The position numbers and the translations under genes were made by a program. DNA of 64,000 nucleotides from Phycisphaerales bacterium (GTDB lineage Bacteria > Planctomycetota > Phycisphaerae > Phycisphaerales > SM1A02), in NCBI GenBank assembly GCA_009692045.1, contig SIAA01000001.1:1-64000 (forward strand), given 5' to 3'. The first letter of the stretch is position 1, and each line of letters opens with the position of its first letter. The notes beneath the pieces were generated by a model. The model was not told where the DNA came from and searched no databases. It was given only the letters and a program-made list of their open reading frames with translations. Positions 13,725 through 33,203 of this stretch are shown here, piece by piece.

Positions 13725-13878
13725 TGATGTACTCCGAGTGGCAGGTAACGAATCGGAGGGCTAGGGACTCGACTTGAGTACAGTTGTCATCTTTGTCGCC
13801 TTTCCCAGTCTCCACCCCCCGCTTGTGACCCTTACACTTCCCGACCATGGCTCTGCCGGCCCCATTCATCATCCTCCC

Positions 13879-15102: not shown

Positions 15103-15137
15103 GTGAATCGGAGTGCGCTGAAGGTAAACTGATCGGC

Positions 15138-16391
15138 ATGAGTTCATCACTGACTCGCCCAGGGGGCCAGACGCCCATGCGCACCACACCGGCTCGCGTT
15201 CTGATCGCCGAGCCACTCCTCCACGGTGCAGTTGTCGCTCTCAAGCAGGCGGGATTCGATGTTGTTCACAATCCCCACCTGACAGAGTCCTCATTGACGG
15301 CTGCCGTGCGGGATCTTGAACCTGATGTTCTCGTGGTCCGTGGAATCCCGGTGACAGAAGCAACGCTCTTGGCAAGCAAACATCTTTCGCTGGTGGTTCA
15401 TGCGGGATCCGGTGCCGAGGGCATCGACATCGCTGCCGCGAGCCGCCGCGGCACCTTGGTCGCCCACTGCCCGGCCCGCGGTGCCGCTGCGGTGGCAGAA
15501 CTCGCATTCGGGCTGATCCTTACCTGTGATCGCCGCATTCCCGAACAGGTCGCTGCCACGCGCGCAGGAAGTTTTGATCACACCAAGTTTTTGGACGCCC
15601 ACGGATTGCACGGGCGCAGCCTGGGAATAATCGGACTCGGATTGGTCGGTCAAGAGGTTGCCAAGCGCGGTCGCAGTTTCGGTATGCATGTGCTGGCGTG
15701 GAGTCCCAATATCACCGAGCAACGATGCGACATCCTCGGTATTGATCTCTGCAGCAATCTTGTGAATCTCGCCAAGTTGTCGGATGTGGTCTCGGTGAGT
15801 GTGACGGGCAACGAGCAGACGCATCATTTGCTTGGGCCTAAGTTCCTGCAGGCCATGCGACCTGGGGCGATCCTGGTGAACACGAGCCAAGGATCAGTCA
15901 TTGATGAGGCAGCGCTGCTGGTGGCGGTCAAGCAGGCTGGAATCAGAGTTGGATTGGATAGCTTCGGGGAGAGGTCAGCCTCGCCTCTCACGGCGGAACT
16001 GTTGGCTCAGAGCGCCGTGTATGGCACCCAGTGCACTGGCGCGATCACCGAACAAGCCTCGGCTGCTGTGGCTGAGGATGCCGTGCGCATTGTGCGCGCG
16101 TGGAGCGAAGAGGGTCGCGCTCCCAATTGCCTCAATGTCGCCTCCAGCACCCACGCGAGTGCTCTGCTCACTCTCCGTCATGAAAACTGCCCGGGCGTTC
16201 TGGCTCGCGTGTTCGAACTCTTGGGAGGGGCCGAGATCAATATTGAAGAGATGGACAACACCATCTGCGCCGGCGGACAGGCGGCGGTTGCTCGCATCCA
16301 TCTCTCCCATGCGCCTGATGCCGCTCTGACGGCGGCAGTCCGCGCCATTCCCCATGTTTTTTCGGCCACGGTCGCCCAACTGAACCCATGA
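15138..16391 (+). CDS. serA: D-3-phosphoglycerate dehydrogenase
   Basis: First committed step of serine synthesis, 3-phosphoglycerate + NAD to 3-phosphohydroxypyruvate. About 417 residues. The NAD-binding Rossmann motif GIIGLGLVGQEVAKR is followed by the D-isomer dehydrogenase block MRPGAILVNTSQGSVIDE with the catalytic Arg/Glu region. The C-terminal ACT domain (ENCPGVLARVFELL, INIEEMDN) is where serine feedback usually binds. ATG at 15138 is used; a TTG at 15099 overlaps the DUF1015 stop by 4 bases and could also serve. The stop overlaps the serC start (ATGA). Confidence 0.93.
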   Translation: MSSSLTRPGGQTPMRTTPARVLIAEPLLHGAVVALKQAGFDVVHNPHLTESSLTAAVRDLEPDVLVVRGIPVTEATLLASKHLSLVVHAGSGAEGIDIAAASRRGTLVAHCPARGAAAVAELAFGLILTCDRRIPEQVAATRAGSFDHTKFLDAHGLHGRSLGIIGLGLVGQEVAKRGRSFGMHVLAWSPNITEQRCDILGIDLCSNLVNLAKLSDVVSVSVTGNEQTHHLLGPKFLQAMRPGAILVNTSQGSVIDEAALLVAVKQAGIRVGLDSFGERSASPLTAELLAQSAVYGTQCTGAITEQASAAVAEDAVRIVRAWSEEGRAPNCLNVASSTHASALLTLRHENCPGVLARVFELLGGAEINIEEMDNTICAGGQAAVARIHLSHAPDAALTAAVRAIPHVFSATVAQLNP

Positions 16392-17566
16392 TGACAAACG
16401 CATCCACCACTTCAACCACCTCACTCTCCACTTCATCTGGCACCTCCCCCGCTCGCCCCGGCGCCATGGGTCGCGTTTACAACTTCTCGGCAGGGCCCGC
16501 TTGTTTGCCGGAATCAGTGCTGCAGGAGTGCGCGAGAGCCATGCTCGATGTCGACGGAACTGGCATGGGAATTCTGGAGCACAGCCACCGCAACTCATGG
16601 TTCATGACAAGACTCGAATCAGTCGAGCACTCCATTCGAGCCGTGACGGGAGCGGGCCCAGAGTGGCGCGTGCTGTTGATGCAGGGTGGAGCCAGCTTGC
16701 ACTTCAACCTGTTGCCTCTCAACTTCCTTCGCCCCACCTCGCAGGCTGACTACCCCGATACCGATGTTTGGAGCGCGAAGGCGATTTTGCAGGCCAAATC
16801 GATGGAGGCGATGGGACTCACCGGCCATGTGCGCGTGCCCTTCAAGGGTGCGCCTTGCCACTATGACCATGTGCCCTCTGCGGACGAGATGTCCCTGCCC
16901 CCGGGTGCTGCATACCTGCACTATTGCTCCAACAACACCGTTCACGGCACGCGGTTTGAACAACCACCTAGCAGCGACGCTCCGCTCGTTTGTGATTCGA
17001 GCAGCGAGATGCTGGGGCGGCCGATGGATCTCAATCGTCACGCCATGATCTACGCAACTGCCCAGAAGAATCTGGGGGTCGCTGGGAGCGTCTTGGTGAT
17101 GATCAAGAAAGATTTTCTTGAAACTGCGCGCCGCGATCTACCCAGCATGCTCTCCTATCGCGAGTTTGATACTGCAGGATCGATGCCGAATACGCCACCG
17201 ACATTCGGCATCTTCGTGATGGGCCTGATGGCTGAGTGGGTGCTCGCGCAGGGCGGGACGCAGGCGATTGCCCGCGCGAACTCGGAGAAGTCAGCCCTGC
17301 TCTACGCCCAGATCGATGGCAGCAGCGGGTTCTTCAGGGGTCTAGCCCAGAAGCACTGCCGCTCGCACATGAATGTCTCATTCAAGACCACTTCCCCTCA
17401 ACTGGACAAGTTGTTCGTTGATGAAGCCGATCGAGTAGGGATGAATGGCCTGACCGGCCACCGCGATGCCGGCGGAATACGAGCCTCCATTTACAACGCA
17501 TTTCCTAGAGCTGGATGCGAAATGCTCGCCCAGTTCATGAGGGAATTCGCCCGCACCCGAGGGTGA
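16388..17566 (+). CDS. serC: Phosphoserine aminotransferase
   Basis: PLP enzyme making 3-phosphoserine from phosphohydroxypyruvate and glutamate. 392 residues. Conserved YNFSAGPACLPESVL near residue 31, GILEHSHRN, LLMQGGASLHF, HYCSNNTVHGT, and AQKNLGVAGSVLVMI, in which the lysine of AQKN carries PLP. The first ~26 residues (Ser/Thr-rich, MMTNASTTSTTSLSTSS) are an extra tail; a later ATG just before GRVYNFSAG would give a standard length. Coupled to serA by ATGA. Downstream gene is convergent. Confidence 0.94.
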   Translation: MMTNASTTSTTSLSTSSGTSPARPGAMGRVYNFSAGPACLPESVLQECARAMLDVDGTGMGILEHSHRNSWFMTRLESVEHSIRAVTGAGPEWRVLLMQGGASLHFNLLPLNFLRPTSQADYPDTDVWSAKAILQAKSMEAMGLTGHVRVPFKGAPCHYDHVPSADEMSLPPGAAYLHYCSNNTVHGTRFEQPPSSDAPLVCDSSSEMLGRPMDLNRHAMIYATAQKNLGVAGSVLVMIKKDFLETARRDLPSMLSYREFDTAGSMPNTPPTFGIFVMGLMAEWVLAQGGTQAIARANSEKSALLYAQIDGSSGFFRGLAQKHCRSHMNVSFKTTSPQLDKLFVDEADRVGMNGLTGHRDAGGIRASIYNAFPRAGCEMLAQFMREFARTRG

Positions 17567-17577
17567 GTAGGGATGAC

Positions 17578-18339
17578 TTACTTCGAGGTTGCCGGGGATA
17601 AAGCCGGTGTCGATTCTTTACCCGTGCCCGCCGGACCGGGAGCGTGGGTAATGGGTTTGATGCGAATGTCGCGGAACTGAATATACGAACCCTCTGACTG
17701 CAGCCCGATGCGGCCGGGCACGACTTCGCACCCAGAGGCTTCATTCTGAAGTACATCATTTACGAACAACTGAAGATGCCCCTCGTCAAGCACGATGCGG
17801 TAAGAGTTCCACTGCCCTAAGGGAAACTCGCTGCATGAACTGGCCTTGGTGGTGCGCCTGCCGCTGGTACGCGCCGGATCCGCCTTCATGGGCACCTCGC
17901 CGATATTCCAGATGTCACCGGCATTCTCCGAGTGCAGTTGAGCTTCGATCGACTTCGGCCAAACCATGTCTGGACCAACGACTCGCAGAAGCACGCCAGA
18001 GTTTCCTGCTCCCTTGGAGGGATCGAAACGCCACTGCAGACGCAGCTCAAAGTTGGTGTAAAGCTCCTTGGTTTCGATATAGCCCCCAGGGGTGCCCTCG
18101 CAGGTGAGTACGCCGCCTGAAGCGGAGAAGGGTGAGGTGTCAGCCGCGTCGTCTTGGGCGCGACCGGGCACGAACACTTTCCACCCAGCCAGGTCCGTGC
18201 CATTGAAGAGCGTGCACCAGCCCTTCTCACCATCGGCACTCGACTGAGTGTTCGTATCAGACCGCCCGCCCAAACACGCCGCCACTACAAATATGGCAGC
18301 AACCCAGGCGCAGCACAGCAATCCACGCGCAGTAATCAT
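17578..18339 (-). CDS. DUF1080 lipoprotein (3-keto-disaccharide hydrolase family)
   Basis: 253 residues. The N-terminal signal ends in a lipobox (AIFVVAAC, Cys at about residue 22), so it is a predicted lipoprotein. The DUF1080 lectin-like beta sandwich follows: WCTLFNGTDLAGWKVF near residue 41, GYIETKELYTNFELRLQWRF, NSGVLLRV, and the closing GRIGLQSEGSYIQFRDIRIKP. Some members hydrolyse 3-keto-glycosides; many only bind sugars, and the substrate here is unknown. It is the last gene of the glucan operon, overlapping the histone-like gene by 4 bases (ATGA). Confidence 0.82.
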   Translation of the reverse strand: MITARGLLCCAWVAAIFVVAACLGGRSDTNTQSSADGEKGWCTLFNGTDLAGWKVFVPGRAQDDAADTSPFSASGGVLTCEGTPGGYIETKELYTNFELRLQWRFDPSKGAGNSGVLLRVVGPDMVWPKSIEAQLHSENAGDIWNIGEVPMKADPARTSGRRTTKASSCSEFPLGQWNSYRIVLDEGHLQLFVNDVLQNEASGCEVVPGRIGLQSEGSYIQFRDIRIKPITHAPGPAGTGKESTPALSPATSK

Positions 18340-18656
18340 CGCGAGTTCGTTCGCAGCGCGGACTCCGCAGCAAGCCAGTTTTCCAGCTCGCTTCCGCCGC
18401 AGGTCGTCCAGCGCAAGTACGCCGACATCTGGACCAGAGCGAAGGCAGGCTCAACAGCAGCCCATCCGAGCTGGCCTCGCTTGCGAGTGGCAGCTGAAGT
18501 TGCCGACCTAAATGCTCGCGTTGAAGTTGATCGAGACTTTTTTGCCTTGGTGGGCTTGGTTGCCTTGGTGGACTTGCTCAACTTGGATGCGGTCACCTGA
18601 GCGCGAGTCTTGGCTGACTTGACACTAGTTCGTGATCTCGACTTCTTTGCTGCCAT
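18336..18656 (-). CDS. Basic histone-H1-like protein with DUF2934-like C-terminus
   Basis: 106 residues from ATG 18656, which has AAGGAG seven bases upstream; a longer frame from 18731 is less likely. Residues 1-60 are almost only Lys, Arg, Ser, Thr and Ala (KKSRSRTSVKSAKTRAQ, KATKPTKAKKSRS), like bacterial histone-H1-type DNA-binding tails. The end, AYLRWTTCGGSELENWLAAE, resembles the small DUF2934 motif. It may bind DNA or polyphosphate; nothing shows an enzyme. Its presence inside a glucan operon, coupled by ATGA to a DUF1080 lipoprotein, is unexpected. Confidence 0.72.
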   Translation of the reverse strand: MAAKKSRSRTSVKSAKTRAQVTASKLSKSTKATKPTKAKKSRSTSTRAFRSATSAATRKRGQLGWAAVEPAFALVQMSAYLRWTTCGGSELENWLAAESALRTNSR

Positions 18657-18727
18657 GGGGGACTCCTTGAGGAAATGAAGCCTACCAACAGACCTCCCCA
18701 ACTCAATGGCCAACACTTGTGACCGGT

Positions 18728-19387
18728 TCAAGCAAAGGGGCAGGATGCACTTAGTGCGGGCAATCCAAAAGGCAGGTCGAATCGCTCGCGCGTGCGAACT
18801 AGCGTCAAACCACCCATTCGTCCCACTGCGCCTAGAGACTGGGGGTTCACCCGCCCCTTCTCATCCAAGATGCCATCGGCAATATGTATCAGCACTACTT
18901 CACCGATCACAATGTTGGGGGAAGCAGTGCTTTGGCTGGCCAAGCGAATGACCTGCCGGGTGATGCACTCGAAAGTCATGGGGCTCTCTGCTACCCGCGG
19001 CGCCTTCACCCTTGTACCTGCAATCGGCGTGAGTCCTACGCGCGCAAACTCCTCCTCGCCATACTCCATGTGCTCCCCGGCGGCGACTACCTGGCGGATG
19101 ATGTCCTCGCTGGCGATGTTTACGGTGAACTCGCCAGTACCGCCCTCATTCACAGGTTTGCAGTTTCGCAGGGTGTCTTTCTCACTGCCGTCATCGCGCA
19201 GCGAGGGACAGAAGAGCAGAGTCATGGGATCGCTTCCGACGCCATTGAAGAATGAAAATGGGGCAAGGTTGCGGGAGCTCCCATCACCGGCGACAGTACC
19301 AACCACCGCGATAGGCCGAGGAACGATGCCGCCGATCAGCAGCTTGTAGCGACCGGCCGCATCGAGTTGGAGCGGATCAAGAATCAT
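18728..19387 (-). CDS. Flavin reductase-like (FMN-binding split barrel) protein
   Basis: 219 residues. Start region MILDPLQLDAAGRYKLLIGGIVPRPIAVVGTV and NLAPFSFFNGVGSDPMTLLFCP are typical of the flavin-reductase-like split barrel, in which RPI and S-rich loops hold FMN. HIADGILDEKGRVNPQSLGAVGRMGG closes the domain. Members reduce flavin with NAD(P)H or have uncharacterised oxidoreductase activity. The start overlaps the DUF1080 gene by 11 bases, and a 71-base gap separates it from the histone-like gene. A flavin step next to DUF1080 would suit a keto-sugar pathway, but this is inference. Confidence 0.85.
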   Translation of the reverse strand: MILDPLQLDAAGRYKLLIGGIVPRPIAVVGTVAGDGSSRNLAPFSFFNGVGSDPMTLLFCPSLRDDGSEKDTLRNCKPVNEGGTGEFTVNIASEDIIRQVVAAGEHMEYGEEEFARVGLTPIAGTRVKAPRVAESPMTFECITRQVIRLASQSTASPNIVIGEVVLIHIADGILDEKGRVNPQSLGAVGRMGGLTLVRTRERFDLPFGLPALSASCPFA

Positions 19388-20201
19388 GGGCCGCGAGCGG
19401 ACGGACCCACATGTTGCGAAAGCACAGAGCGTCGCCGTGATCCTGCAGGCGGATCGGCAAACGATCAGCGTGAGCGGTGTACTTGGCGGCTGCCGCGTGG
19501 GCAGTCGATCCTCTTATCACTGAGGCATCCTGTACCAGAATTCCGTTGAATAGCACGGTCATGGTGCCCGCTTGCGCCAATGATCCATCGTCATTGAACT
19601 TGGGAGCACGAAAGACGATGTCGTACACATTCCATTCGCCCTGCGGCTTGCAGGCGTTGACCAGAGGCGGATACTGCCCATACATGGCGCCGGCCATGCC
19701 ATCGCAGTAAGTGACATTGTTGTTGCTGTTGAGAATCTGTAGCTCGTACTGATTCATGAAAAACACCCCGGAGTTGCAGCCATGCTGACCGGCGCACTTG
19801 AGGTCCTTTGGCACCATCCACTCCATGTGGAACTGACAATCACCGAAGGAGTCCCGGGTGGAGATGTCCCCTGAACCCGGCGCAACTTGAGCGATGCCGT
19901 CGCGCACGCTCCAACCTGCGTCGGCATCCTTGAAAGCCGCCTTCCACTTGGAGAGGTTGGCGCCGTCAAAGAGCACGACCGCATCGGAGGGCGCTCCGCC
20001 GCACTGGGCGCTGGGGGCGACCACGGTCGGTTGCGGCCGCTTCATGTCGTGAATGCCCCAGCTTTCGCTCTGGTTGATCGCCTTTGCTCCCAATAGTGCG
20101 CCGAGCAGTGCGGCGACCGCGATGGCAGCCCGATTCAACTTGTGGGCGCGAAAAAGACCCCGCGCGGGGTTCATCGATGGCTTGATGGAATTCTCATTCA
20201 T
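19377..20201 (-). CDS. DUF1080 protein with N-terminal membrane anchor
   Basis: 274 residues. A hydrophobic segment at about residues 22-41 (LNRAAIAVAALLGALLGAKA) anchors or exports the protein. The DUF1080 domain starts at AVVLFDGANLSKWK near residue 74, followed by DCQFHMEWMVPK, GCNSGVFFMNQYELQIL, QGEWNVYDIVFRAPKF and the closing ADRLPIRLQDHGD...FRNMWVRPL. This form, with the QYELQIL strand, is the common planctomycete type. It overlaps glgP by 4 bases and belongs to the same operon. The second DUF1080 gene at 17578 is only distantly similar, so this is not a recent duplication. Confidence 0.83.
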   Translation of the reverse strand: MNENSIKPSMNPARGLFRAHKLNRAAIAVAALLGALLGAKAINQSESWGIHDMKRPQPTVVAPSAQCGGAPSDAVVLFDGANLSKWKAAFKDADAGWSVRDGIAQVAPGSGDISTRDSFGDCQFHMEWMVPKDLKCAGQHGCNSGVFFMNQYELQILNSNNNVTYCDGMAGAMYGQYPPLVNACKPQGEWNVYDIVFRAPKFNDDGSLAQAGTMTVLFNGILVQDASVIRGSTAHAAAAKYTAHADRLPIRLQDHGDALCFRNMWVRPLAAHDS

Positions 20202-22381
20202 GGTTGTTTCTCCGTGGGAGTGAGGTAAGCCTCTCTAAGGTAGTCGCCAATCATGCGGTGCGTATTGAAGACCGGGGCAATGGTCGCAGCGCTGGCCAGT
20301 GCCATCTCTATCCACCGATGGGGCAAACCGTCCGCGCCACGATCGTAGAAAGTCGGCACCAGGTGTTCCTCCAGCAATTGATAAAGCGAGGCGGCGTCGT
20401 GCTCGTCCGCGGAGAGTTCGTCGGGAGCCAGAGGAAGCGACCAGCCGTTGTTTCCATCCGCGGCCTCAGGCCACCATCCATCCAAGACACTGCAGTTGAT
20501 TCCGCCGTGCAGTGGCGGCTTCATCCCACTAGTGCCACTTGCTTCATAGGGGCGAAGCGGATTGTTGAGCCATACATCACAGCCACTGGTGAGCATGCGA
20601 CCAACATGCATGTCGTACTCCTCAATCAGAGCCACTCGCCCATTCATGCGCGGGTCGCGTTGCATCAGGAATACCTGCTGCGCCAGTCTCTGGGCCCCCT
20701 CATCGCGAGGATGAGCCTTCCCGGCAAAGATGATCTGCAGTGGGCGCTGGGGGTTTCCCAGAAGCTTTGCCAGCCGATCGATGTCACTGAAGATCAGACC
20801 GGCCCGCTTGTAGGTAGCAAATCTGCGGGCGAAACCGATGGTGAGCGCATCGGTGGAAAGTGCCTGCAGCGCTGCGAACGCGCCCAGTTCGCTCTCCCCT
20901 CGACGCATCGACTGCCGCACCAAACGCTCCCTTACAAAGTGAACTAGTCGGACGCGGTGGGACTGCCTAAGTCCCCAGAACTCAGCGTGCGGCACCTGCG
21001 CGGCCCGCTCCCAGCCCTGCCTAGCTGGATCAGGCTCGCGCAGATCGATACTGGCGTGCTCATGCCAGAAACGCTCGGCCTGCGATGAAATCCAGGTTCG
21101 CACATGCACGCCGTTGGTGACATGACCGATGGGGATTGGTGCACCATCGAGGTGGCGAATGCTTTGCCACATCTTGCGACTCACCTCGCCGTGCAGTGCC
21201 GAAACTCCATTGGCACGCGAACTCAAGCGCAGCGCCAGCGCCGTCATGCAGATCGAACTCGGCTTCTTCGCTGAGGTGCAACTGCTTGTGGCCTCACTTC
21301 CCGCCTGGGCTGCTCCGCCCCCCTGCGCGTCGGTCACGCCATCCTCGCCCCCCATCTGGGCAAATGCTCGCGGAGAAATGCATGCCGAGCGTAGAACGCG
21401 CTTCAGCTGCACTACTGCCTCGCGGACTCCGTAGCGATCGTGACCCGCCGGCACCGGTGTGTGGGTGGTGAACACTGTGCTCGATCGAACCCGCTCCATC
21501 GCGGCAGCGGGCTGCGCGCCCGCTTCTACCAACTGCGCGACTCTCTGTAGGGGAGCGAAGGCGGCATGTCCTTCGTTGAGATGAAACACCGTGGGGGACT
21601 CCCCCACCGCCTGCAGAGCCATGACACCTCCGACTCCCAGCAACACCTGTTGTCGCAATCGCAGCGACGGCTCGCCCTTGTACAGACCCATGGTGAGCTC
21701 ACGATCCTCGCTCCGATTGGCTCGCAGATTGGCATCGAGCAGGTAAAGCGGAACCCGACCCACCTGCGCCAACCAGATGCGAGCCTTGACGCGCCGCCTT
21801 CCGATCGGGCATGCCACTGAGCATCCAGTGTCCTCGAGGGGCCAGCGCTGCGGTTCAAAGTTGGGATAGGAAACTCGTGTAACCCCCTCGACTGAGATTT
21901 CCTGGCGGTAATAACCGTGGGTGTAGAAAAGTCCTACCGCGCACAGCGGCACTCCCAACTCGCTGGCGCTCTTGAGGTGGTCGCCTGCGAGAACTCCAAG
22001 TCCGCCGGCGTACTGCGGCATACTCTCGTGCAGCGCGTACTCCGAGCACAGATAGGCGATTCGCAGCGGTGCAGGTGCCGCGGGGAACTGGGAGCGCCAC
22101 CAGCTCGGTCGGGCCATCTCCTCGTCCCGAGCAATCTCGGCGCGAGCCAGCGCATGCATGAACTCACGGTCGCCGTAGTGCTCGAGCAACTCGAGGTCGG
22201 TAGCCGCAGACAACACTTCAGCCACGGAGTGGTTGCTTGATTCATATGCCGCGGCGTTGAGCATCTCAAACGGAACCCGCATTTCCGGAATCCAGGTCCA
22301 AGCAAGGTTGCGGGCGATTGCTGCCAGAGATTGGCGAAGGTCGGCGGCGCGCGCGGCGGATTCACGAGTCAGATCACTCAT
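20198..22381 (-). CDS. glgP: Alpha-glucan phosphorylase
   Basis: Phosphorolysis of alpha-1,4-glucan or maltodextrin to glucose-1-phosphate, PLP-dependent. 727 residues, the short phosphorylase type. Visible: an N-terminal NLAWTWIPEMR (DUF3417-like), CSEYALHESMPQYAGGLGVLAGDHLKSAS, HLNEGHAAF, HGEVSRKMW, FARRFATYKRAGLIF, IIFAGKAHPRDE, and the PLP/active-site EASGTSGMKPPLHG followed by INCSVLDGWW. Before the HGEVSR block is a Gly/Ala/Ser-rich stretch of about 30 residues (GGEDGVTDAQGGGAAQAGSE) that looks like an added loop. Overlaps malQ upstream and DUF1080 downstream by 4 bases each. Confidence 0.93.
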   Translation of the reverse strand: MSDLTRESAARAADLRQSLAAIARNLAWTWIPEMRVPFEMLNAAAYESSNHSVAEVLSAATDLELLEHYGDREFMHALARAEIARDEEMARPSWWRSQFPAAPAPLRIAYLCSEYALHESMPQYAGGLGVLAGDHLKSASELGVPLCAVGLFYTHGYYRQEISVEGVTRVSYPNFEPQRWPLEDTGCSVACPIGRRRVKARIWLAQVGRVPLYLLDANLRANRSEDRELTMGLYKGEPSLRLRQQVLLGVGGVMALQAVGESPTVFHLNEGHAAFAPLQRVAQLVEAGAQPAAAMERVRSSTVFTTHTPVPAGHDRYGVREAVVQLKRVLRSACISPRAFAQMGGEDGVTDAQGGGAAQAGSEATSSCTSAKKPSSICMTALALRLSSRANGVSALHGEVSRKMWQSIRHLDGAPIPIGHVTNGVHVRTWISSQAERFWHEHASIDLREPDPARQGWERAAQVPHAEFWGLRQSHRVRLVHFVRERLVRQSMRRGESELGAFAALQALSTDALTIGFARRFATYKRAGLIFSDIDRLAKLLGNPQRPLQIIFAGKAHPRDEGAQRLAQQVFLMQRDPRMNGRVALIEEYDMHVGRMLTSGCDVWLNNPLRPYEASGTSGMKPPLHGGINCSVLDGWWPEAADGNNGWSLPLAPDELSADEHDAASLYQLLEEHLVPTFYDRGADGLPHRWIEMALASAATIAPVFNTHRMIGDYLREAYLTPTEKQP

Positions 22382-23880
22382 CGATCCATCCTAATGCTCC
22401 GCCAAGAATCATCAACCAATCGCCGCACGATTCGGGCGTTTGTCTCACTCGGGTCCCCAGCACCGAGTCGAAACGCCCAGTTGCCCAGCACGGTTCCGGG
22501 CAGATTCATCCGCGCTTCACTGGGAAGTTCCAGCAGATCCTGCATGGGAATGATGGACAATCGCGCGGGTGAGGAGAGGGTGAGTCTGGTGAGGGTTCGG
22601 GCAGGGCGGGCAAATGCACTGCGGGCGTATCGCTGCGCGCGCTTACGGGCGCATGCTGGAAGTGCAGCCCACCATCCGATGGCGGTGTCATTGTCATGGG
22701 TGCCCGGATAGGCAACTGTGTGCGCGGGATGATGACACGGTAGTTCGGTTGACTTCGGGTGGCCAAATCCCCACTGAACAATTTTCATTCCCGGCAGACC
22801 AAACTGGGCACGCAGTTTCATGACTGCCGGCGTATGCGCCCCCAGGTCCTCTGCCACTAGAGGAAGCGGACCGAGCTGCGCCGCGAGCGCACATAGCAGT
22901 TGCTCTCCAGGTGCCGACCCCCACTTGCCCAACCGGGCTGTGCGGGCAGCGCCCGGGACCTCCCAGGCGCGGCACAGTCCAATGAAGTGATCGATCCGCA
23001 CTGCGTCAAATCGAGTGAGCGTCCATCGCACACGGTCGATCCACCACCTGAAGTCGGTGCGTTGATGCTCGCGCCAGCGATAGTGCGGATGTCCCCACAG
23101 TTGGCCCTGCTTGGAGAAGTCATCGGGAGGAACCCCGGTGAGAACCGTGGGGTTTCCGCGGCGATCGAGACGAAAGAGCTCAGGGTGAGCCGCAACATCT
23201 GCAGAGTCAGACGCAACAAAGATGGGAAGATCGCCTAGGAGCCGGATGCCAGCCGATTGAGCGCGCGCGCGAAGCTCCAACCACTGTGATTGAAAGGCAA
23301 ACTGGATAAAGGCCTCCAGCCCACGCCCAGACTCCTGCCGGTACTCGAGCCAGTCGGGAAGCCATCCGCGCGCCGCGCGCGCAAAGGCACGGAAGGCGGG
23401 ACTGCTGAATCCTTCCCTAGCGGCAAACACTTTGTGGGCATCATCGAGACGAGGCATCTTGTACTCGCGTGCTGCCTGATACTCGGTTCGCGGACGCTGG
23501 CTACTAGGCGCGCCTAGCCCTCCTTGCGCCCGTTTGAGAGACGCGGATGCCGTGAGAGCGCTTCGCTTCAGCAACCCGTCACGCGCCAGCATGTGAAGCG
23601 AGATGAAAAGCGGCTCGCCCGCGAACGAACTGGCGGACGAATAGGGGGATTCTGCCGCGCCGATCGGTCCTACTGGCAACATCTGCCACCAGGTCATGCC
23701 AGCGCGTCTCAGCCAGTTGATGAACCGGTGGGCTGCTATTCCAAGATCACCAATGCCGTGGGGGCCGGGCAGACTTGTTGGATGCAGCAGAACTCCAGCG
23801 GTGCGCTCGGAAAAGATCGGATGCGGCGGATCTGGTGCGGCGTGCATTTCTGACTTGGATCGCTTGCGCACATCCGTCAC
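22378..23880 (-). CDS. malQ: 4-alpha-glucanotransferase (amylomaltase)
   Basis: GH77 enzyme transferring alpha-1,4-glucan segments, lengthening short maltodextrins so that GlgP can act. About 500 residues. Conserved opening AGVLLHPTSLPGPHGIGDLG, WWQMLPVGPIG, SPYSSASSFAGEPLFIS, then VRIDHFIGLCRAWEVP (region II with the Asp nucleophile), LPLVAEDLG (Glu), and AYPGTHDNDTAIGWW (third Asp). Start taken as GTG 23880, which overlaps the upstream stop as GTGA; ATG 23847 is possible. The stop overlaps glgP (ATGA). Confidence 0.93.
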   Translation of the reverse strand: MTDVRKRSKSEMHAAPDPPHPIFSERTAGVLLHPTSLPGPHGIGDLGIAAHRFINWLRRAGMTWWQMLPVGPIGAAESPYSSASSFAGEPLFISLHMLARDGLLKRSALTASASLKRAQGGLGAPSSQRPRTEYQAAREYKMPRLDDAHKVFAAREGFSSPAFRAFARAARGWLPDWLEYRQESGRGLEAFIQFAFQSQWLELRARAQSAGIRLLGDLPIFVASDSADVAAHPELFRLDRRGNPTVLTGVPPDDFSKQGQLWGHPHYRWREHQRTDFRWWIDRVRWTLTRFDAVRIDHFIGLCRAWEVPGAARTARLGKWGSAPGEQLLCALAAQLGPLPLVAEDLGAHTPAVMKLRAQFGLPGMKIVQWGFGHPKSTELPCHHPAHTVAYPGTHDNDTAIGWWAALPACARKRAQRYARSAFARPARTLTRLTLSSPARLSIIPMQDLLELPSEARMNLPGTVLGNWAFRLGAGDPSETNARIVRRLVDDSWRSIRMDR

Positions 23881-26423
23881 GGCGTCTGCACCCAAGCCGC
23901 ACCTGAGAGAGGAGGAACCGTGACAGTTGCGGTTGGCGAGACCGCCCCTAGTCGGCCTTCAGCCGCCGGTAGTGAGGAAGTTTCCCGGACACCTTGTCGG
24001 AAACTGGCGCCATCACCGAACACCTTGGTCCACGCGGCCCCGGCGCGGCCAGTCAGCGCACCCGACACATCGACTACGGCCACGCGCTCACTGGCATTGA
24101 TTGCAACCAGCACCTGCTCTTCGGGCAGCGACCGGAGAAACACCAGCGTGCCCTGCTCATCATCGGCGGCGATCAACTGATAACAGCCGCGGCGCAAAGC
24201 CCGGTGCTTGTGGCGCAGCGCGGTAATGCGCTGATACCACGCCAGCTGCTGGGGATCCACCACATCTAACGGTGAGTCGTAGGTCCCGATGTCATCCCAC
24301 AACATCGGCTTGCGATTGTTGGGATCATCTGATCCCCACATCCCCACTTCGTCTCCGTAGTAGATCATGGGAGCGCCCGGATAGGTCATCTGCATGAAGG
24401 CTGCCAGCCGCGCTCGGGCAAAACTCACGGCATCCGGCTTGCCCCCTCGGTACTCCGGACTCGACTGCTCGCGGTTTCCCTGATCGAACTCGCGATCAGG
24501 ATTGAACATCTTGCTGGCGATGCGATCAGTGTCGTGACTGTCCAAGAGGTTTTGCAAGGCAAATGTCACCTCGCTCGGATAAGCGCGTCGCAGCTCGGCC
24601 AGACGGCGATCAACCTCACTCGGCGGAATGCTGTTGACTCGATCGCCGATGAATCGCATCACCGTATCGGCGAACGGGTAGTTCATGACGGCATCCATGG
24701 TGGTGCCATCGAGCCAATCATCCCCGCGGCGCCACACCTCTCCCACTATGTAAGCATCGGGATTGATGGACTTGACCAGCGTGCGCCACTCCCGCCAGAA
24801 GGGCATGGCAATTTCATTGGGAACATCGAGCCTCCATCCATCTATGCCGTCAGCGGGATCACCATCCCCATCCGGGTCCATCCAGCGTCTAGTGATGGCG
24901 AAGATGTGCTGCTTCACTTCATCACTGGCGAAGCCGCGCCTGTCTTTGGCAAACACTGGTAGGTCTCCGAACCCAGCCCATCCGTCGTACACGAATGGCT
25001 CGAATGACCGGATGGAGAACCAGTCCTTGTAGAGGGATTTCTCCCCCTTCTCGCGAACATCCTTGAATGCCGGATGCGCGACACCAACATGATTGAACAC
25101 GCCGTCGATGATGACGCGAAACCCCATCGACTTGGCGTGGCGCAGAAACTCGAGAAACAATCGATCAGTCTCGGTCCATGTCCAACTACTCGGATCCTTG
25201 AGATTCTCATTCGCCTCTGCCGAGGCATAGTCGCCCAGCGTTCCGAAGTGTTCGTCAATGTGAATGAAGTTCGTTGCCTCGTACTTGTGATGACTTGCCG
25301 CCTGAAACACCGGATTGAGATAGAGGGCATTCACGCCCAAATCCTTGAGGTATTGCAGTTTCTCCCTCAGGCCGCCCAAGTCGCCACCATATAGGCGCTT
25401 GAACACAAAGTAGTTGTAAAAAGTCTGACCGCTGGCAGTCTCCCACTCGCTAGGCGACTTCCACTCACTGGTCCAGGGGCGCGTTTGCGGGGCGTTGCCT
25501 CGGGCATCTCCGTCGCGAAAGCGATCGAGCATCACCTGATACCAGATGGCATCCTTGCTCCATTCTGGCAGACGGAAGGGCGGCAGATTCGAGGCATCGA
25601 GTTGATAGACCTCGCGGTCGCGGAGCTGACAACCTGCATCATGCACTACGAAGGTGTACTGAGCACCCAGTGAACTCGCTGGGAGGACCGCCTCCCACCA
25701 ATCGAACAACTCATCGCTACCCGCGCGCCCCATGGGACTCTCGCCGCCAACGCTGGTTGCGAGTGTCACGGCACTGACATCACCAAGCAATGTTCGGTAG
25801 CGCAGCAGAATTCCGCCGGAGGGATCGGCCTGCATGAACATGGGCAGCTTCTGATCGTGACCGAGCGCATCGGCGTTGATCTTGCCATCGGCGGGATGGG
25901 CGCTCGATGGATCGAGGTTGGCAAGTGCTCCCAGCCGCAGAACCGAGTTGCGCCCACCCTGCCCGTCGTCGACCGTTGCCTGATTGAGCGGGTCGTGAAT
26001 CCACTGTGTGCCATCAATGACAAACTTGTAAAGTCGCTGCCCGCTCGCGACGGTGACGCATGTTCGCCAAGTTCCGTCACTGCCGAGAAGCATCTCGTTC
26101 CCCCGCCCGATTGCGGCAATATTGGTGCCTGATTCCGCACGAGGCTCAGATGCTGGGGCGGCACCCACGGACCATCCATTGAAGTCTCCGGCGACTTGAA
26201 CCCTCTCCGCGTGTTTCTCAAGGCGCAGGCTGAAACACACCTCCCACTGCCCTCCCCCTACCGGACGCGCCTGAACACTGGCGGGGTTGCGCTCTGACGG
26301 GGTGAGGGTCGAACTCTGCGCCACCGGAACTTGCGGCGGGAAGTCGGCAGCGATTTGTACGGTGAGCATGAGGGAAGCGGCGCACATGTTCATTACAAGG
26401 GCCGATGGAGATGAGGCGGACAT
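23877..26423 (-). CDS. Exported GH13 alpha-amylase/neopullulanase-type enzyme with N-terminal glycogen-binding-like domain
   Basis: About 848 residues. A signal peptide (LVMNMCAASLMLTVQIAA) precedes a CBM48-type domain (VQVAGDFNGWS, LYKFVIDGTQWIHDP), a second beta domain, and the GH13 barrel. The four GH13 regions are complete: DGVFNHVG (~residue 440), GWRLDVPNEI (nucleophile Asp, ~530), IVGEVW (acid/base Glu, ~558) and LLDSHDTDR (~627). The last is typical of cyclomaltodextrinase/neopullulanase types, so the likely job is cutting maltodextrins or pullulan outside the cytoplasm. ATG 26423 is preferred because it puts the hydrophobic segment near the N-terminus. First gene of the operon; divergent from the transporter. 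Confidence 0.88.
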   Translation of the reverse strand: MSASSPSALVMNMCAASLMLTVQIAADFPPQVPVAQSSTLTPSERNPASVQARPVGGGQWEVCFSLRLEKHAERVQVAGDFNGWSVGAAPASEPRAESGTNIAAIGRGNEMLLGSDGTWRTCVTVASGQRLYKFVIDGTQWIHDPLNQATVDDGQGGRNSVLRLGALANLDPSSAHPADGKINADALGHDQKLPMFMQADPSGGILLRYRTLLGDVSAVTLATSVGGESPMGRAGSDELFDWWEAVLPASSLGAQYTFVVHDAGCQLRDREVYQLDASNLPPFRLPEWSKDAIWYQVMLDRFRDGDARGNAPQTRPWTSEWKSPSEWETASGQTFYNYFVFKRLYGGDLGGLREKLQYLKDLGVNALYLNPVFQAASHHKYEATNFIHIDEHFGTLGDYASAEANENLKDPSSWTWTETDRLFLEFLRHAKSMGFRVIIDGVFNHVGVAHPAFKDVREKGEKSLYKDWFSIRSFEPFVYDGWAGFGDLPVFAKDRRGFASDEVKQHIFAITRRWMDPDGDGDPADGIDGWRLDVPNEIAMPFWREWRTLVKSINPDAYIVGEVWRRGDDWLDGTTMDAVMNYPFADTVMRFIGDRVNSIPPSEVDRRLAELRRAYPSEVTFALQNLLDSHDTDRIASKMFNPDREFDQGNREQSSPEYRGGKPDAVSFARARLAAFMQMTYPGAPMIYYGDEVGMWGSDDPNNRKPMLWDDIGTYDSPLDVVDPQQLAWYQRITALRHKHRALRRGCYQLIAADDEQGTLVFLRSLPEEQVLVAINASERVAVVDVSGALTGRAGAAWTKVFGDGASFRQGVRETSSLPAAEGRLGAVSPTATVTVPPLSGAAWVQTP

Positions 26424-26452
26424 CGTCGATTGATCTCTATACTGACTCGGTG

Positions 26453-28837
26453 ATGGACTCGTCATCGAGGCAGCGAACCGCCATCCTAGTCCGTGCCCGA
26501 GGCGTTGTCGGAACGCTCACGACTCTGCTGCGCTCCGCAGCGGTACTGGTTTTCCTTGCCCTGCTGCTGTGGGCATTCGCCCGAGTCGGCCTACGCGAGT
26601 TTGCCCGCGTCTTCGCCACTGACGGTCGGACTGAGCTAGTAGTGATGCACTGGTCGGGCGGCGGCGGGCAGGAGGAGGACGCCATCGTCGACTCCTCTTT
26701 GCAGGAGTTTGAAGCTGCCAATCCCAGTCTGCGTGTGCGCCGCATAAATGCCGGTGGTGCGGGCGACTTCTACACCAAGCTGCAAACCATGACGGCTGCG
26801 GGCGATCCCCCCGACGTGTTCTATGTTGGCGCCGAGCGCGTGCCCGCGTTCGCCGCACTAGGACTCCTGCTTCCACTTGATGAGTTTGTGGCGAGTGATG
26901 GAGTCGCTCCGCGGCTCAACCTCGCCGACTTCTATCCCCACACAGTTGAGGCGTTTCGCTACGACGCCGAGAGAAGTGAGCTGGGAGTTGGGCCGCTCTG
27001 GGGCATCCCCAAGGATTTCACAACCGTTGGCTTCTACATCAATGTTGACCTGTTCCACCGCGCCGGCATCGCGCTACCGAGTGACGACTGGACCTGGGAT
27101 GAGTTCGCCGCCGCTGCCCGCGCCATTGGTGCCCTCAAGGGAGTTGATGCGGGCGCGGTCTTTGTTACTTGGCCCATGATGGTGCGCGCCTATCTGCGCA
27201 CCGAAGGGCTTGATGTTCATGACATGACTGACTCAGCAATGATCGCCACCCTCGAGAGGCTTCGTTCTTGGCGTCACGACGAGACAAAGACAATCCTGCG
27301 CACCAGCGCCAACATCGCGGAGGACAGTCTGTTCCTTGGGGGCAGGATCGGCATGGCTGGGCCATTCGGGCGCTGGGTGGTTCCGAGCTACCGCACGATC
27401 AAGTCCAGCGCTGATGGCGGATTCGAGTGGGACTTCCGCCAGCTTCCCCACGGCGCCGTTCGATCAAACACCATTGCCACAGTCTCATGGAGTATTGCTC
27501 GCGCCACCGAGCATCCCCAAGAAGCATGGCGGTTGGTGCAGTGGTTGGTCAGTCCAGCGAGTCAGGCGGCGCAGGCACGACTCGGACTCGCCATCCCCAC
27601 CATTCGCTCCGTCGCCACATCGGAAGCCTTCGCCGACCCCGCGCAGGCACCCGCCAATGACCGCGGTTTCCTCGCCTCCGCCGAAACAGCACGGGTGGTT
27701 GAGTGGCCGGAGGATCCGCAGTTTGAGGGGCTTCTCGGCAGCAGACTCGATCAGGCGCTCAAGACAGGCGCACTGAGCGCGGCGGCGGCGAGCGCCAACT
27801 TCGTGCGCGACTGGGCGGCGGTGAGTAACTCGCCGCTATCCCATCGGCGCGGCGCCCGAGTGGATTGGAGTGCCCTCGCCGCGATCGGCGCCGCTGCCCT
27901 GGCTCTCGCCGCCCTCTATCTCTACTGGCCCAGCGTGAGAGGTGGCAACAGGAACGAGCGTGCCGGCATGCTGCTGGCATCCCCGTGGATAATCGGGTTC
28001 GCCCTCTTCATGGCAATCCCGGTGGCGATGAGTCTGGTTCTCGCCTTCAGTTCATGGAGCGGGGTATCAGAGCTCGGCAGCGCCGAGTATGTGGGGCTGG
28101 CGAACTTCGAGCAGCTTCTCAGCGATGACATCCGCTTCCGAGCGAGCCTGAGAGTCACCATCATCTACGCGCTGATCGCCGTCCCCTGCGGGCAACTTCT
28201 GGCGCTGGGCTTGGCGATGCTCCTGCACACACGAGTGCGGCCGCAGAGATTGTTTCGGGCAGCGTGGTATCTGCCCAGCGTCGTCGCCGGTGTCGGTGCG
28301 GCAGTCCTCTGGCAATGGGTGTTCGACACGCAGCACGGCCTGCTCAACGGCATGCTCAGTGCCATCGGCATCGATGGTCCGGATTGGCTTGGCCGCGACG
28401 CTGATGTTGCTGGCGCTCCTGCCTTTGCCCTGATGAGCCTTTGGTATGTCGGCGGCAGCATGATGATCTATCTCGCAGGGCTGCAACAAGTACCCGCGGA
28501 TCTCATCGAAGCCTCGGCCATCGACGGCGCTGGCGCCTGGAGCAGATTCCGGCGAGTGACGCTGCCCATGCTCTCGCCTGTCATCTTGTTCAACATGCTC
28601 ATGGCCGTTATCGCCAGTTTTCAGGTGTTCACGCAGGCCTTCATCATGGGTGGCGGCAAGTCAGGCGATGACACGCTGTTCTATGTTCTCTACCTGTACG
28701 ACCAAGGCTTCGTGAACTACCGCATGGGATACGCCAGCGCCCTCGCCTGGCTGCTGCTGCTGGCGGTGCTGGTCATGACCGGGATCATTCTGCGCAGCAG
28801 TTCTCGCTTCGTCTATTACGAAGGGCTCAAGCTGTGA
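26453..28837 (+). CDS. Fused sugar-binding protein and MalF-type ABC permease
   Basis: About 794 residues carrying two transporter subunits in one chain. Residues ~20-50 form a membrane anchor. A family-1 sugar-binding domain spans ~60-440: VVMHWSGGGGQ, GDFYTKLQTMTAAGDPPDVFYV, PLWGIPKDFTTVGFYIN, AWRLVQWLVSPASQ. A membrane helix (LAAIGAAALALAALYLYW) then leads into a MalF/UgpA-type permease with ASPWIIGFALFMAIP, WYLPSVVAGVGAAVLWQWVF and the EAA loop EASAIDGAGAWSRFRRVTLP, which docks on the ATPase. No stop or frameshift separates the halves. It overlaps malG by 4 bases (ATGA-type, GTGA at 28834). Confidence 0.9.
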   Translation: MDSSSRQRTAILVRARGVVGTLTTLLRSAAVLVFLALLLWAFARVGLREFARVFATDGRTELVVMHWSGGGGQEEDAIVDSSLQEFEAANPSLRVRRINAGGAGDFYTKLQTMTAAGDPPDVFYVGAERVPAFAALGLLLPLDEFVASDGVAPRLNLADFYPHTVEAFRYDAERSELGVGPLWGIPKDFTTVGFYINVDLFHRAGIALPSDDWTWDEFAAAARAIGALKGVDAGAVFVTWPMMVRAYLRTEGLDVHDMTDSAMIATLERLRSWRHDETKTILRTSANIAEDSLFLGGRIGMAGPFGRWVVPSYRTIKSSADGGFEWDFRQLPHGAVRSNTIATVSWSIARATEHPQEAWRLVQWLVSPASQAAQARLGLAIPTIRSVATSEAFADPAQAPANDRGFLASAETARVVEWPEDPQFEGLLGSRLDQALKTGALSAAAASANFVRDWAAVSNSPLSHRRGARVDWSALAAIGAAALALAALYLYWPSVRGGNRNERAGMLLASPWIIGFALFMAIPVAMSLVLAFSSWSGVSELGSAEYVGLANFEQLLSDDIRFRASLRVTIIYALIAVPCGQLLALGLAMLLHTRVRPQRLFRAAWYLPSVVAGVGAAVLWQWVFDTQHGLLNGMLSAIGIDGPDWLGRDADVAGAPAFALMSLWYVGGSMMIYLAGLQQVPADLIEASAIDGAGAWSRFRRVTLPMLSPVILFNMLMAVIASFQVFTQAFIMGGGKSGDDTLFYVLYLYDQGFVNYRMGYASALAWLLLLAVLVMTGIILRSSSRFVYYEGLKL

Positions 28838-29739
28838 ACTCAGACAACTATCTATGGCGCGGCTATCGATCGCTTCGGATGGCTTCACGCTCTCAAGTCA
28901 TGGCGTTTCTGCTCCTGGCACTCGGCGCAACCATCTCTCTGTTCCCGCTGTGGTGGATGACTGTCACCAGCCTGCAGAGTGCGTCAGAGGCGGGCGCCGC
29001 GGTGACCGGCGCCAAGGGGCTCTCGCTCTGGCCTCATGAAGCGCAAGTCGACAACTATCCGGAGGCGCTGGCGCAGATGGGCTCGCTGCGCTGGCAGGGA
29101 TTCTTGGATGCGCTGGCAAACTCCACCGTCGTGGCGTCACTGGTCGTCACTGGCACGGTTCTCTCCTCAAGCCTTGTGGCATTCGCCTTCGCTCGTCTGC
29201 GATTTCGCGCGCGCGGCCTGCTCTTCACCCTCATGCTCGCGACCATGATGCTTCCCGGCCAGGTTGTACTCATTCCGCTCTTTCTACTTTTCCGATACCT
29301 CGGCTGGGTCGACACCCTTCTGCCGCTGATCGTGCCGGCGTTTTTCGGCAGCGCCTTCTTCATCTTCATGTATCGCCAGTTCATGGCGCAGATTCCTGAA
29401 GCCCTGTTCGAAGCCGCGCGCATGGATGGCTACGGCCCTATTGGGTTATGGTGGCATGTTGCCCTTCCCCTGAGCAGGCCGGTGACGGCGACTACCGCGG
29501 TGTTTACCTTCATCTGGTGCTGGAACGATTTTCTTGGTCCTCTGATCTATCTGCAATCGGAGAGTCAGATGACGCTTGCCGTCGCACTCAACGGATTCCG
29601 ATCACAGTATGGTGGACTCGACGATGTGCACCTGCTCATGGCAGCAAGCATCGTGACAATGATTCCGTGCCTGCTGATTTTCTTCGCGGCTCAGCGCCAC
29701 TTTGTTGAGGGTCTTTCTCGCGGCGGCGTGAAGGGCTGA
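28834..29739 (+). CDS. MalG-type ABC sugar permease
   Basis: 301 residues, GTG start overlapping the previous stop by 4 bases. Six predicted membrane segments. ATISLFPLWWMTVTSL near the N-terminus is the usual MalG/UgpE first helix, LWPHEAQVDNYPEAL the following loop, and LFEAARMDGYGPIGLWWHVALPLSRP the EAA loop that contacts the ATPase. FIWCWNDFLGPLIYL and FFAAQRHFVEGLSRGGVKG close the protein. Forms the permease pair with the fused upstream protein; the likely substrate is maltodextrin from context, not from sequence. Confidence 0.93.
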   Translation: MNSDNYLWRGYRSLRMASRSQVMAFLLLALGATISLFPLWWMTVTSLQSASEAGAAVTGAKGLSLWPHEAQVDNYPEALAQMGSLRWQGFLDALANSTVVASLVVTGTVLSSSLVAFAFARLRFRARGLLFTLMLATMMLPGQVVLIPLFLLFRYLGWVDTLLPLIVPAFFGSAFFIFMYRQFMAQIPEALFEAARMDGYGPIGLWWHVALPLSRPVTATTAVFTFIWCWNDFLGPLIYLQSESQMTLAVALNGFRSQYGGLDDVHLLMAASIVTMIPCLLIFFAAQRHFVEGLSRGGVKG

Positions 29740-33137: not shown

Positions 33138-33203
33138 TCCTGCTATCGGCAACAAAGTCAGCCATGCTGCCGCAAGGAGTCACCGCGCCGGGAAGTCGGA
33201 GGA

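What the first reader, a model, noticed from the sequence alone, without database searches (positions are those of the whole stretch)
17578..26423. Glucan operon that carries two DUF1080 genes, a flavin-reductase-like gene and a histone-like gene
Seven minus-strand genes follow with almost continuous short overlaps (ATGA/GTGA), from the exported GH13 enzyme through malQ and glgP to two DUF1080 proteins, a flavin-reductase-like protein and a Lys/Ser-rich DUF2934-like protein. Some DUF1080 members hydrolyse 3-keto-glycosides. The combination could join ordinary maltodextrin breakdown to a keto-sugar route, with flavin chemistry alongside.
Basis: partly seen in the sequence, partly recalled or inferred. 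Interest (0 to 1): 0.62.

Follow-up and report, generated by a model that had tools for sequence, protein, structure and literature searches.

The report
Starch-sugar cluster with keto-glycoside enzyme
In a planctomycete genome, a run of starch- and glycogen-breakdown genes continues straight into four other genes; comparison with relatives shows that only one of the four (a secreted DUF1080 enzyme) keeps company with starch genes elsewhere, while the flavin, histone-like and second DUF1080 genes go with a neighbouring serine-biosynthesis block.

Summary
The seven genes and their short overlaps are real, with two caveats: the histone-like gene overlaps its neighbour only if it starts at TTG, and the first overlap is 19 bases. 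Comparison with 180 genomes of the same family shows the run is not one conserved operon but the meeting of two older neighbourhoods: (1) an alpha-glucan block (GH13-MalQ-GlgP, divergent MalEF/G/K, a second GH13 at 31044-33155); (2) a serC/serA/DUF1015 block, to which the flavin-reductase-like gene belongs even where DUF1080 is absent. The two DUF1080 genes and the DUF2934-like gene sit at the junction. DUF1080a is nevertheless kept with alpha-glucan genes (beside GlgP, or upstream of the second GH13 on the same strand) in 8 of 17 genera that carry it. In other phyla its relatives are often next to a Gfo/Idh/MocA oxidoreductase, and this genome holds an exported-looking homologue on another contig (8TDF-like, E 6e-73); no GMC oxidase was found. 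A 3-keto-glycoside step attached to alpha-glucan use is thus plausible for DUF1080a, with its dehydrogenase encoded elsewhere. A flavin role in it is not supported. No activity is shown.

The parts
23877..26465 (-). Exported GH13 enzyme of the neopullulanase / maltogenic amylase / cyclomaltodextrinase type (ATG at 26423 gives a likely signal peptide)
   Evidence: Alpha-amylase 1.2e-49; nearest solved structure 1BVZ neopullulanase 2 / TVAII 6.8e-86; part of a conserved GH13-MalQ-GlgP order in g1, g5, g22, g33, g38 (GlgP inverted in g17)
22378..23895 (-). 4-alpha-glucanotransferase MalQ (GH77)
   Evidence: Glyco_hydro_77 1.5e-131, NF011080 514 bits
20198..22381 (-). Alpha-glucan phosphorylase GlgP
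   Evidence: TIGR02094 678 bits; 22-residue insertion not in the relatives aligned
19377..20201 (-). DUF1080a: exported DUF1080 protein, the member linked to alpha-glucan genes
   Evidence: 3keto-disac_hyd 9e-42; nearest structure 4QHZ 3e-54; N-terminal hydrophobic segment by eye; upstream of GH13b or beside GlgP in 8 genera
18728..19387 (-). Flavin-reductase-like split-barrel protein (FLAV), no signal peptide seen
   Evidence: Flavin_Reduct 4e-16; nearest 3BPK nitrilotriacetate monooxygenase B 3e-26; conserved neighbour of SerC (38 of 60 genomes)
18336..18731 (-). Lys/Ser-rich tail plus DUF2934-like C-terminus (HISTL); probable ATG start 18656
   Evidence: orthologues in the same place in G001 and genus g42; DUF2934 2.3e-5 in one orthologue
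17578..18339 (-). DUF1080b: DUF1080 lipoprotein-like protein (lipobox by eye)
   Evidence: 3keto-disac_hyd 6e-34; conserved RTxGRxTxK and WPxSxEAQLHS motifs in 30 relatives
26405..28837 (+). Divergent MalE-MalF fusion (solute-binding domain plus permease)
   Evidence: SBP_bac_1 1.8e-31 and BPD_transp_1 1.8e-11 in one ORF; same fusion in relatives
28834..29739 (+). MalG-type permease
   Evidence: BPD_transp_1 1.7e-21
29774..31006 (+). MalK-type ATPase
   Evidence: ABC_tran 2.9e-33, OB_MalK 8.9e-7
31044..33155 (-). GH13b: exported CBM48-GH13-amylase_C protein with dockerin-like end; the gene next to DUF1080a in g45, g16, g26, g33, g38
   Evidence: Pfam; linkage
13774..15102 (+). DUF1015 protein of the serine block
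   Evidence: DUF1015 2.2e-78
15099..16391 (+). D-3-phosphoglycerate dehydrogenase-like (PGDH, serA)
   Evidence: identified by sequence reading; orthologues beside SerC and FLAV
16388..17566 (+). Phosphoserine aminotransferase (serC), convergent with DUF1080b
   Evidence: identified by sequence reading; orthologues in 45 of 45 genera

Best explanation
The stretch is the meeting of two conserved gene neighbourhoods of a Phycisphaerae-type planctomycete. The first is an alpha-glucan uptake and breakdown locus: two exported GH13 enzymes, the divergent Mal transporter with a MalE-MalF fusion, and cytosolic MalQ and GlgP. The second is the serA/serC/DUF1015 block with the flavin-reductase-like gene. 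DUF1080a is an exported accessory of the alpha-glucan locus. Most likely it cleaves the glycosidic bond of 3-keto-glucosides in the periplasm after an exported Gfo/Idh/MocA dehydrogenase (contig C52 of this genome) has oxidised C3 of alpha-linked gluco-oligosaccharides, for instance alpha-1,6 or alpha-1,1 linked remnants that GlgP and MalQ cannot use. DUF1080b would be a second, separately moving DUF1080 of the same general chemistry. FLAV and the DUF2934-like protein are neighbours, not pathway members. Shown: gene content, overlaps, conserved neighbourhoods, homology. Inferred: export, keto-glycoside chemistry, substrate, division of labour.
For: DUF1080a directly upstream of GH13b on the same strand in 21 genomes of five genera (g45, g33, g16, g38, g26), and within 13.5 kb, always same strand, in 27 genomes of eight genera. 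Beside GlgP in g1, g5, g17, g33, g38. DUF1080a relatives in 12 of 80 named loci from six phylum-level groups are directly next to a Gfo/Idh/MocA gene; the one checked has 8TDF as nearest structure, 2.5e-112. This genome's homologue, G000:C52:6301-7689, has an RR-type signal by eye and matches 8TDF at 6e-73. Its orthologue lies 5-9 kb from DUF1080a in g42 and g43, in g42 with the same Kup/DAO flank as C52. Published: BT2158 is a periplasmic glycoside 3-dehydrogenase needed for growth on trehalose, leucrose and palatinose (PMC11300592); BT2157 is a DUF1080 3-ketotrehalose hydrolase, and a DUF1080 protein is needed for lactose use in Caulobacter (PMC9007349). FLAV is near SerC in 38 of 60 genomes, including genera without DUF1080 nearby.
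Against: DUF1080a is closest to 4QHZ, not to the characterised group (about 1e-5 to 8TDA), so the chemistry is carried over a distance. In this genome no Gfo/Idh/MocA gene shares a contig with any DUF1080 gene. The genus-level co-occurrence of DUF1080a, GlgP and the dehydrogenase is not significant once relatedness is considered (too few independent pairs). In 9 of 17 genera DUF1080a is not near alpha-glucan genes. Outside the family no GH13b-DUF1080a neighbourhood was seen in the 80 named loci; the only hit belongs to g45.
Confidence: 0.45

Rival explanations
1. DUF1080a is an ordinary (unoxidised-substrate) glycosidase or glucan-binding protein of the alpha-glucan locus, without keto chemistry.
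For: A planctomycete DUF1080 protein (THTE_1561) was reported to hydrolyse xanthan, lichenan and other beta-glucans directly (PMC10881899). The linkage of DUF1080a to GH13b and GlgP needs no dehydrogenase. The own dehydrogenase gene is on another contig.
Against: The same DUF1080 subfamily is next to Gfo/Idh/MocA genes in many phyla, and the dehydrogenase orthologue is near it in g42 and g43. Reported direct activity is on beta-glucans, not alpha-glucans.
Confidence: 0.25
2. The seven genes are one functional operon, in which the flavin protein serves the keto-sugar route.
For: Almost continuous short overlaps. DUF1080a, FLAV and DUF1080b stay together in four genera. The DUF1080a/FLAV overlap also occurs in the sister genome G001.
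Against: FLAV accompanies SerC/PGDH, a transhydrogenase-like gene and a low-molecular-weight phosphatase in genera without DUF1080 nearby. The four-gene segment lacks glucan genes in G001 and g42. GlgP is inverted in g17. FLAV presence is unrelated to DUF1080a, GlgP or the dehydrogenase by genus (p 0.13-0.38).
Confidence: 0.12
3. The order is mere regional synteny: the genes co-transcribe here by accident of rearrangement and no pathway joins them.
For: Other apparently unrelated pairs (FLAV-SerC) are kept equally well in this family. DUF1080a moves between contexts. The relatedness-aware test is without power.
Against: DUF1080a meets alpha-glucan genes in two different arrangements, upstream of GH13b or beside GlgP, always on the GH13b strand (27 of 27).
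Confidence: 0.18

Closest known systems
Bacteroides thetaiotaomicron BT2156-BT2160 (BT2158 periplasmic glycoside 3-dehydrogenase, BT2157 DUF1080 3-ketotrehalose hydrolase)
   Same: An exported-looking Gfo/Idh/MocA dehydrogenase homologue (8TDF-like) and exported DUF1080 proteins are in the genome; the published substrates are alpha-linked glucose disaccharides
   Different: The dehydrogenase is not in the locus; DUF1080a is nearest to 4QHZ rather than to the other DUF1080 structures; the locus carries GlgP, MalQ, GH13 and a Mal-type ABC transporter
Caulobacter LacABC plus DUF1080 (CCNA_01705) lactose route
   Same: Exported DUF1080 protein in a disaccharide-use locus
   Different: No GMC oxidoreductase (PF05199) was found in this genome
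Classical maltodextrin loci (mal transport, MalQ, GlgP/MalP, neopullulanase-type GH13)
   Same: Same enzyme set and divergent transporter
   Different: MalE and MalF are fused; DUF1080a and an exported CBM48-GH13 with dockerin-like end are attached
Thermogutta terrifontis DUF1080 endo-xanthanase THTE_1561
   Same: Planctomycete exported DUF1080 protein
   Different: Reported to act directly on beta-glucans and xanthan; no alpha-glucan context described

Membership tests
DUF1080 / 3-keto-disaccharide hydrolase (PF06439) | Full-length match above the curated cut-off | tested here: met
   143.7 and 118.2 bits against a cut-off of 26.8, positions 2-187 and 1-187 of 187
DUF1080 / 3-keto-disaccharide hydrolase (PF06439) | Activity on 3-keto-glycosides | not testable with these tools
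   needs assay; also not every DUF1080 member is reported to need a keto substrate
Glycoside 3-dehydrogenase plus DUF1080 pathway (BT2158/BT2157 type) | Exported Gfo/Idh/MocA dehydrogenase of the 8TDF group in the genome | tested here: met
   G000:C52:6301-7689, 8TDF 6.3e-73; RR-type signal seen by eye only
Glycoside 3-dehydrogenase plus DUF1080 pathway (BT2158/BT2157 type) | Dehydrogenase encoded next to the DUF1080 gene | tested here: not met
   different contigs in this genome; 5-9 kb apart in g42 and g43, directly adjacent in other phyla
LacABC-type (GMC) 3-dehydrogenase pathway | GMC oxidoreductase in the genome | tested here: not met
   no PF05199 match in the own genome, 95% complete
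Maltodextrin utilisation locus | MalQ, GlgP, GH13 and Mal-type ABC transporter together | tested here: met
   enzyme set conserved in g1, g5, g17, g33, g38
Single conserved seven-gene operon | Same gene set and orientation in relatives | tested here: not met
   full set with all genes co-oriented only in g1 (window) and g5, in g5 without a detected HISTL; GlgP inverted in g17; glucan genes absent beside the segment in G001 and g42
DUF2934 (PF11154) protein | Match above the curated cut-off | tested here: inconclusive
   this copy 13.5 bits, orthologue L181 24.4 bits, cut-off 22

The most novel reading that the evidence does not exclude
Planctomycetes of this family couple extracellular alpha-glucan breakdown to an exported oxidise-then-cleave route: the dehydrogenase on C52 makes 3-keto-gluco-oligosaccharides and DUF1080a, co-inherited with a dockerin-bearing CBM48-GH13, cleaves linkages that phosphorylase and glucanotransferase cannot.
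Probability: 0.3. Interest if true: 0.55.

Novelty: new variant of a known kind. Interest (0 to 1): 0.4.

Why it matters
DUF1080 genes are strikingly numerous in planctomycetes and mostly without known substrate. It also shows how an apparent operon can mislead: the flavin and histone-like genes look like pathway members but are better explained as neighbours.

Tried and rejected
GlgP residues 347-375 were first taken for a compensated frameshift; alignment shows an in-frame insertion of 22 residues instead. The Gfo/Idh/MocA plus TIM-barrel pair on C61 was considered as the keto-sugar maker and dropped: no export signal seen, nearest structure 7BVJ, a different group. Linkage judged by GlgP alone understated the DUF1080a association; GH13b had to be added. 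Gene co-occurrence across genera looks strong but does not survive a relatedness-aware test for lack of independent pairs; a first tree had two rows in a wrong frame and was discarded. The Q in the LxWRF motif of DUF1080b is not a sign of decay: relatives have E, D, N or Q there. Rfam search of 12-34 kb found nothing; promoter and terminator scans were uninformative. A Nature 2024 paper on an alternative glycan-breakdown pathway, known to me from memory, was not held. Structure prediction was not used because full-length family matches already settle the fold.
Full report
What is there. Seven minus-strand ORFs lie at 17578-26465 with overlaps of 19, 4, 4, 11, 4 and 4 bases. Family searches name them GH13, MalQ (GH77), alpha-glucan phosphorylase, DUF1080, flavin-reductase-like, a Lys/Ser-rich protein with a DUF2934-like end, and a second DUF1080. 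The start of the Lys/Ser-rich gene is probably ATG 18656, as in its orthologues (MAKK...), which turns its 4-base overlap with the flavin gene into a gap of about 70 bases. Divergent from the GH13 gene runs a Mal-type transporter whose binding protein and first permease are one ORF. Behind it is another minus-strand GH13 with CBM48 and a dockerin-like end at 31044-33155, called GH13b here. Downstream of DUF1080b, convergent, lie serC, serA and a DUF1015 gene; the names serC and serA rest on reading the sequences and on their strict conservation, the DUF1015 one on Pfam.

Where it comes from. The window is contig C34 of a 2.17 Mb, 95% complete assembly. Several contigs of relatives match, by length, named records of Phycisphaerae / Phycisphaerales and other planctomycete MAGs: G001:C6 and SYPI01000068.1, G161:C1 and VGYB01000001.1, G019:C14 and JAHBWZ010000003.1. 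The genome holds eight DUF1080 domains; DUF1080 is reported as over-represented in planctomycetes (PMC5673643).

Is it one operon? In 181 genomes of the family (the window's own included), orthologue positions were compared. FLAV lies within 9 kb of SerC in 38 of 60 genomes that have both, in nine genera, and beside PGDH in two more (g25, g43). In g39, g15, g16, g43 and g45 this happens without any DUF1080 gene nearby; frequent flanks there are a pyridine nucleotide-disulphide oxidoreductase (transhydrogenase-like) and a low-molecular-weight phosphatase. FLAV is near GlgP only in g1, g5 and g17. The grouping of DUF1080a, FLAV and DUF1080b is kept in g1, g5, g17 and g42 (DUF1080a near FLAV in 21 of 21 genomes, DUF1080b near FLAV in 20 of 21), with the DUF2934-like gene seen in g1 and g42. 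It lacks glucan genes in g42 and in the sister genome G001, although G001 is only 55% complete. In g17 GlgP is inverted relative to its neighbours. So the seven-gene run is a junction.

The part that is kept. The alpha-glucan order GH13-MalQ-GlgP recurs in g1, g5, g22, g33 and g38, with GlgP inverted in g17, and MalEF/G/K is divergent from GH13 in g1, g5, g17 and g38. DUF1080a was then tested against GH13b. It lies upstream of GH13b, on the same strand, within 5 kb in 21 genomes of five genera (g45, g33, g16, g38, g26), and within 13.5 kb in 27 genomes of eight genera, always on the same strand (in g1, g5 and g17 the two bracket the glucan block). In g33 and g38 the pair stands beside GlgP-MalQ-GH13, which are on the opposite strand. 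Thus 8 of the 17 genera with a DUF1080a orthologue keep it with alpha-glucan genes, in more than one arrangement.

Is there a keto-sugar maker? No GMC C-terminal domain was found in the genome. Eight Gfo/Idh/MocA matches exist, none on a contig with a DUF1080 gene. One, G000:C52:6301-7689, begins with an RR-containing signal (by eye) and matches the dehydrogenase structures 8TDF and 8TDH at 6e-73 and 7e-72. Deposition codes next to these (8TDA, 8TDE, 8TDI) are DUF1080 and glucuronide-3-dehydrogenase entries; that they belong to one published pathway is my recollection and could not be checked. In a scan of named genomes, the DUF1080a subfamily occurs in Planctomycetota, Acidobacteria, Gemmatimonadetes, Aminicenantes, Verrucomicrobia, Armatimonadetes, Bacteroidota and others. 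In 12 of the best 80 loci it is directly next to a Gfo/Idh/MocA gene on the same strand; one of those was checked and has 8TDF as nearest structure, 2.5e-112. The nearest own-genome homologue of the best-matching ones is the C52 gene. In genus g42 its orthologue (52-54% identical in four genomes; more distant homologues in others) stands 5-6 kb from DUF1080a in the genomes whose contigs reach, followed by a DAO and a Kup gene as on C52; in g43 it is 9 kb away, and in g33 and g38 on the same contig within 30 kb. So a plausible dehydrogenase is present, in trans here and nearer in relatives.

Mechanism proposed. Exported GH13 and GH13b open alpha-glucans; maltodextrins enter through MalEFGK and are used by MalQ and GlgP in the cytosol. 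In the periplasm the C52 dehydrogenase oxidises C3 of remaining gluco-oligosaccharides and DUF1080a cleaves the resulting 3-keto-glycosides. Published parallels: BT2158 is a periplasmic glycoside 3-dehydrogenase needed on trehalose, leucrose and palatinose (PMC11300592); BT2157 is a DUF1080 3-ketotrehalose hydrolase, and a DUF1080 protein of Caulobacter is needed on lactose (PMC9007349); BT2158 with BT2156 or BT2157 acts on glucosinolates (PMC12385236). Against over-reading: BT2157 and BT2158 were dispensable on raffinose-family sugars (PMC11501099), and a planctomycete DUF1080 protein is reported to hydrolyse unoxidised beta-glucans (PMC10881899). Export, substrate and chemistry are inferred, not shown.

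Limits. Gene calls in relatives come from homology and a simple ORF chooser. Orthology was set by score thresholds, and match tables were cut at about 150 rows, so counts near the thresholds are approximate. Genus-level co-occurrence of DUF1080a with the dehydrogenase (p 1.6e-5) and GlgP (1.4e-5), and its absence for FLAV (0.13-0.38), are raw Fisher values. On a single-gene SerC tree only four or five supported independent pairs exist, so these associations cannot be called independent of relatedness. Neighbourhood conservation is also partly shared ancestry.

Verdict. Observation confirmed; interpretation partly supported; a new variant of a known kind with moderate interest.

Noticed in passing
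window 26405-28837: Solute-binding domain and MalF-type permease in one ORF, next to separate MalG and MalK genes; the same fusion is present in g5, g17 and g38.
   Followed up: partly
window 20198-22381, residues about 347-368: GlgP carries an in-frame insertion of 22 Gly/Ala/Gln/Ser-rich residues absent from the ten relatives aligned.
   Followed up: yes
window 31044-33155: Exported CBM48-GH13-amylase_C protein ends in a repeat that reads like a planctomycete dockerin (Pfam Dockerin_1 E 0.014).
   Followed up: partly
L083:7965-9311 (G000:C10): One ORF joins a MarC-type membrane protein to a ThuA (trehalose utilisation) domain; it lies a few kb from another DUF1080 gene, and MarC genes also stand between DUF1080b and serC in several genomes of genus g42.
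   Followed up: partly
L080:8366-10411 (G000:C24) and L082:2415-5615 (G000:C36): Other DUF1080 domains of this genome are fused to an alpha-L-fucosidase domain and to a cytochrome c domain.
   Followed up: no
L218:6726-9374 (G000:C45): Two tandem Gfo/Idh/MocA genes with RR-type signals follow a sulfatase-modifying-factor-like gene; further candidates for exported sugar oxidation.
   Followed up: no
L047:5156-7713 and relatives of genus g42: The flavin-reductase-like gene has a conserved tie to serC/serA and a transhydrogenase-like gene; the reason for that link is unknown.
   Followed up: partly
window 18336-18656: Lys-rich tail plus short DUF2934-like motif is kept in the same place in relatives although the tail sequence itself is not conserved.
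   Followed up: partly
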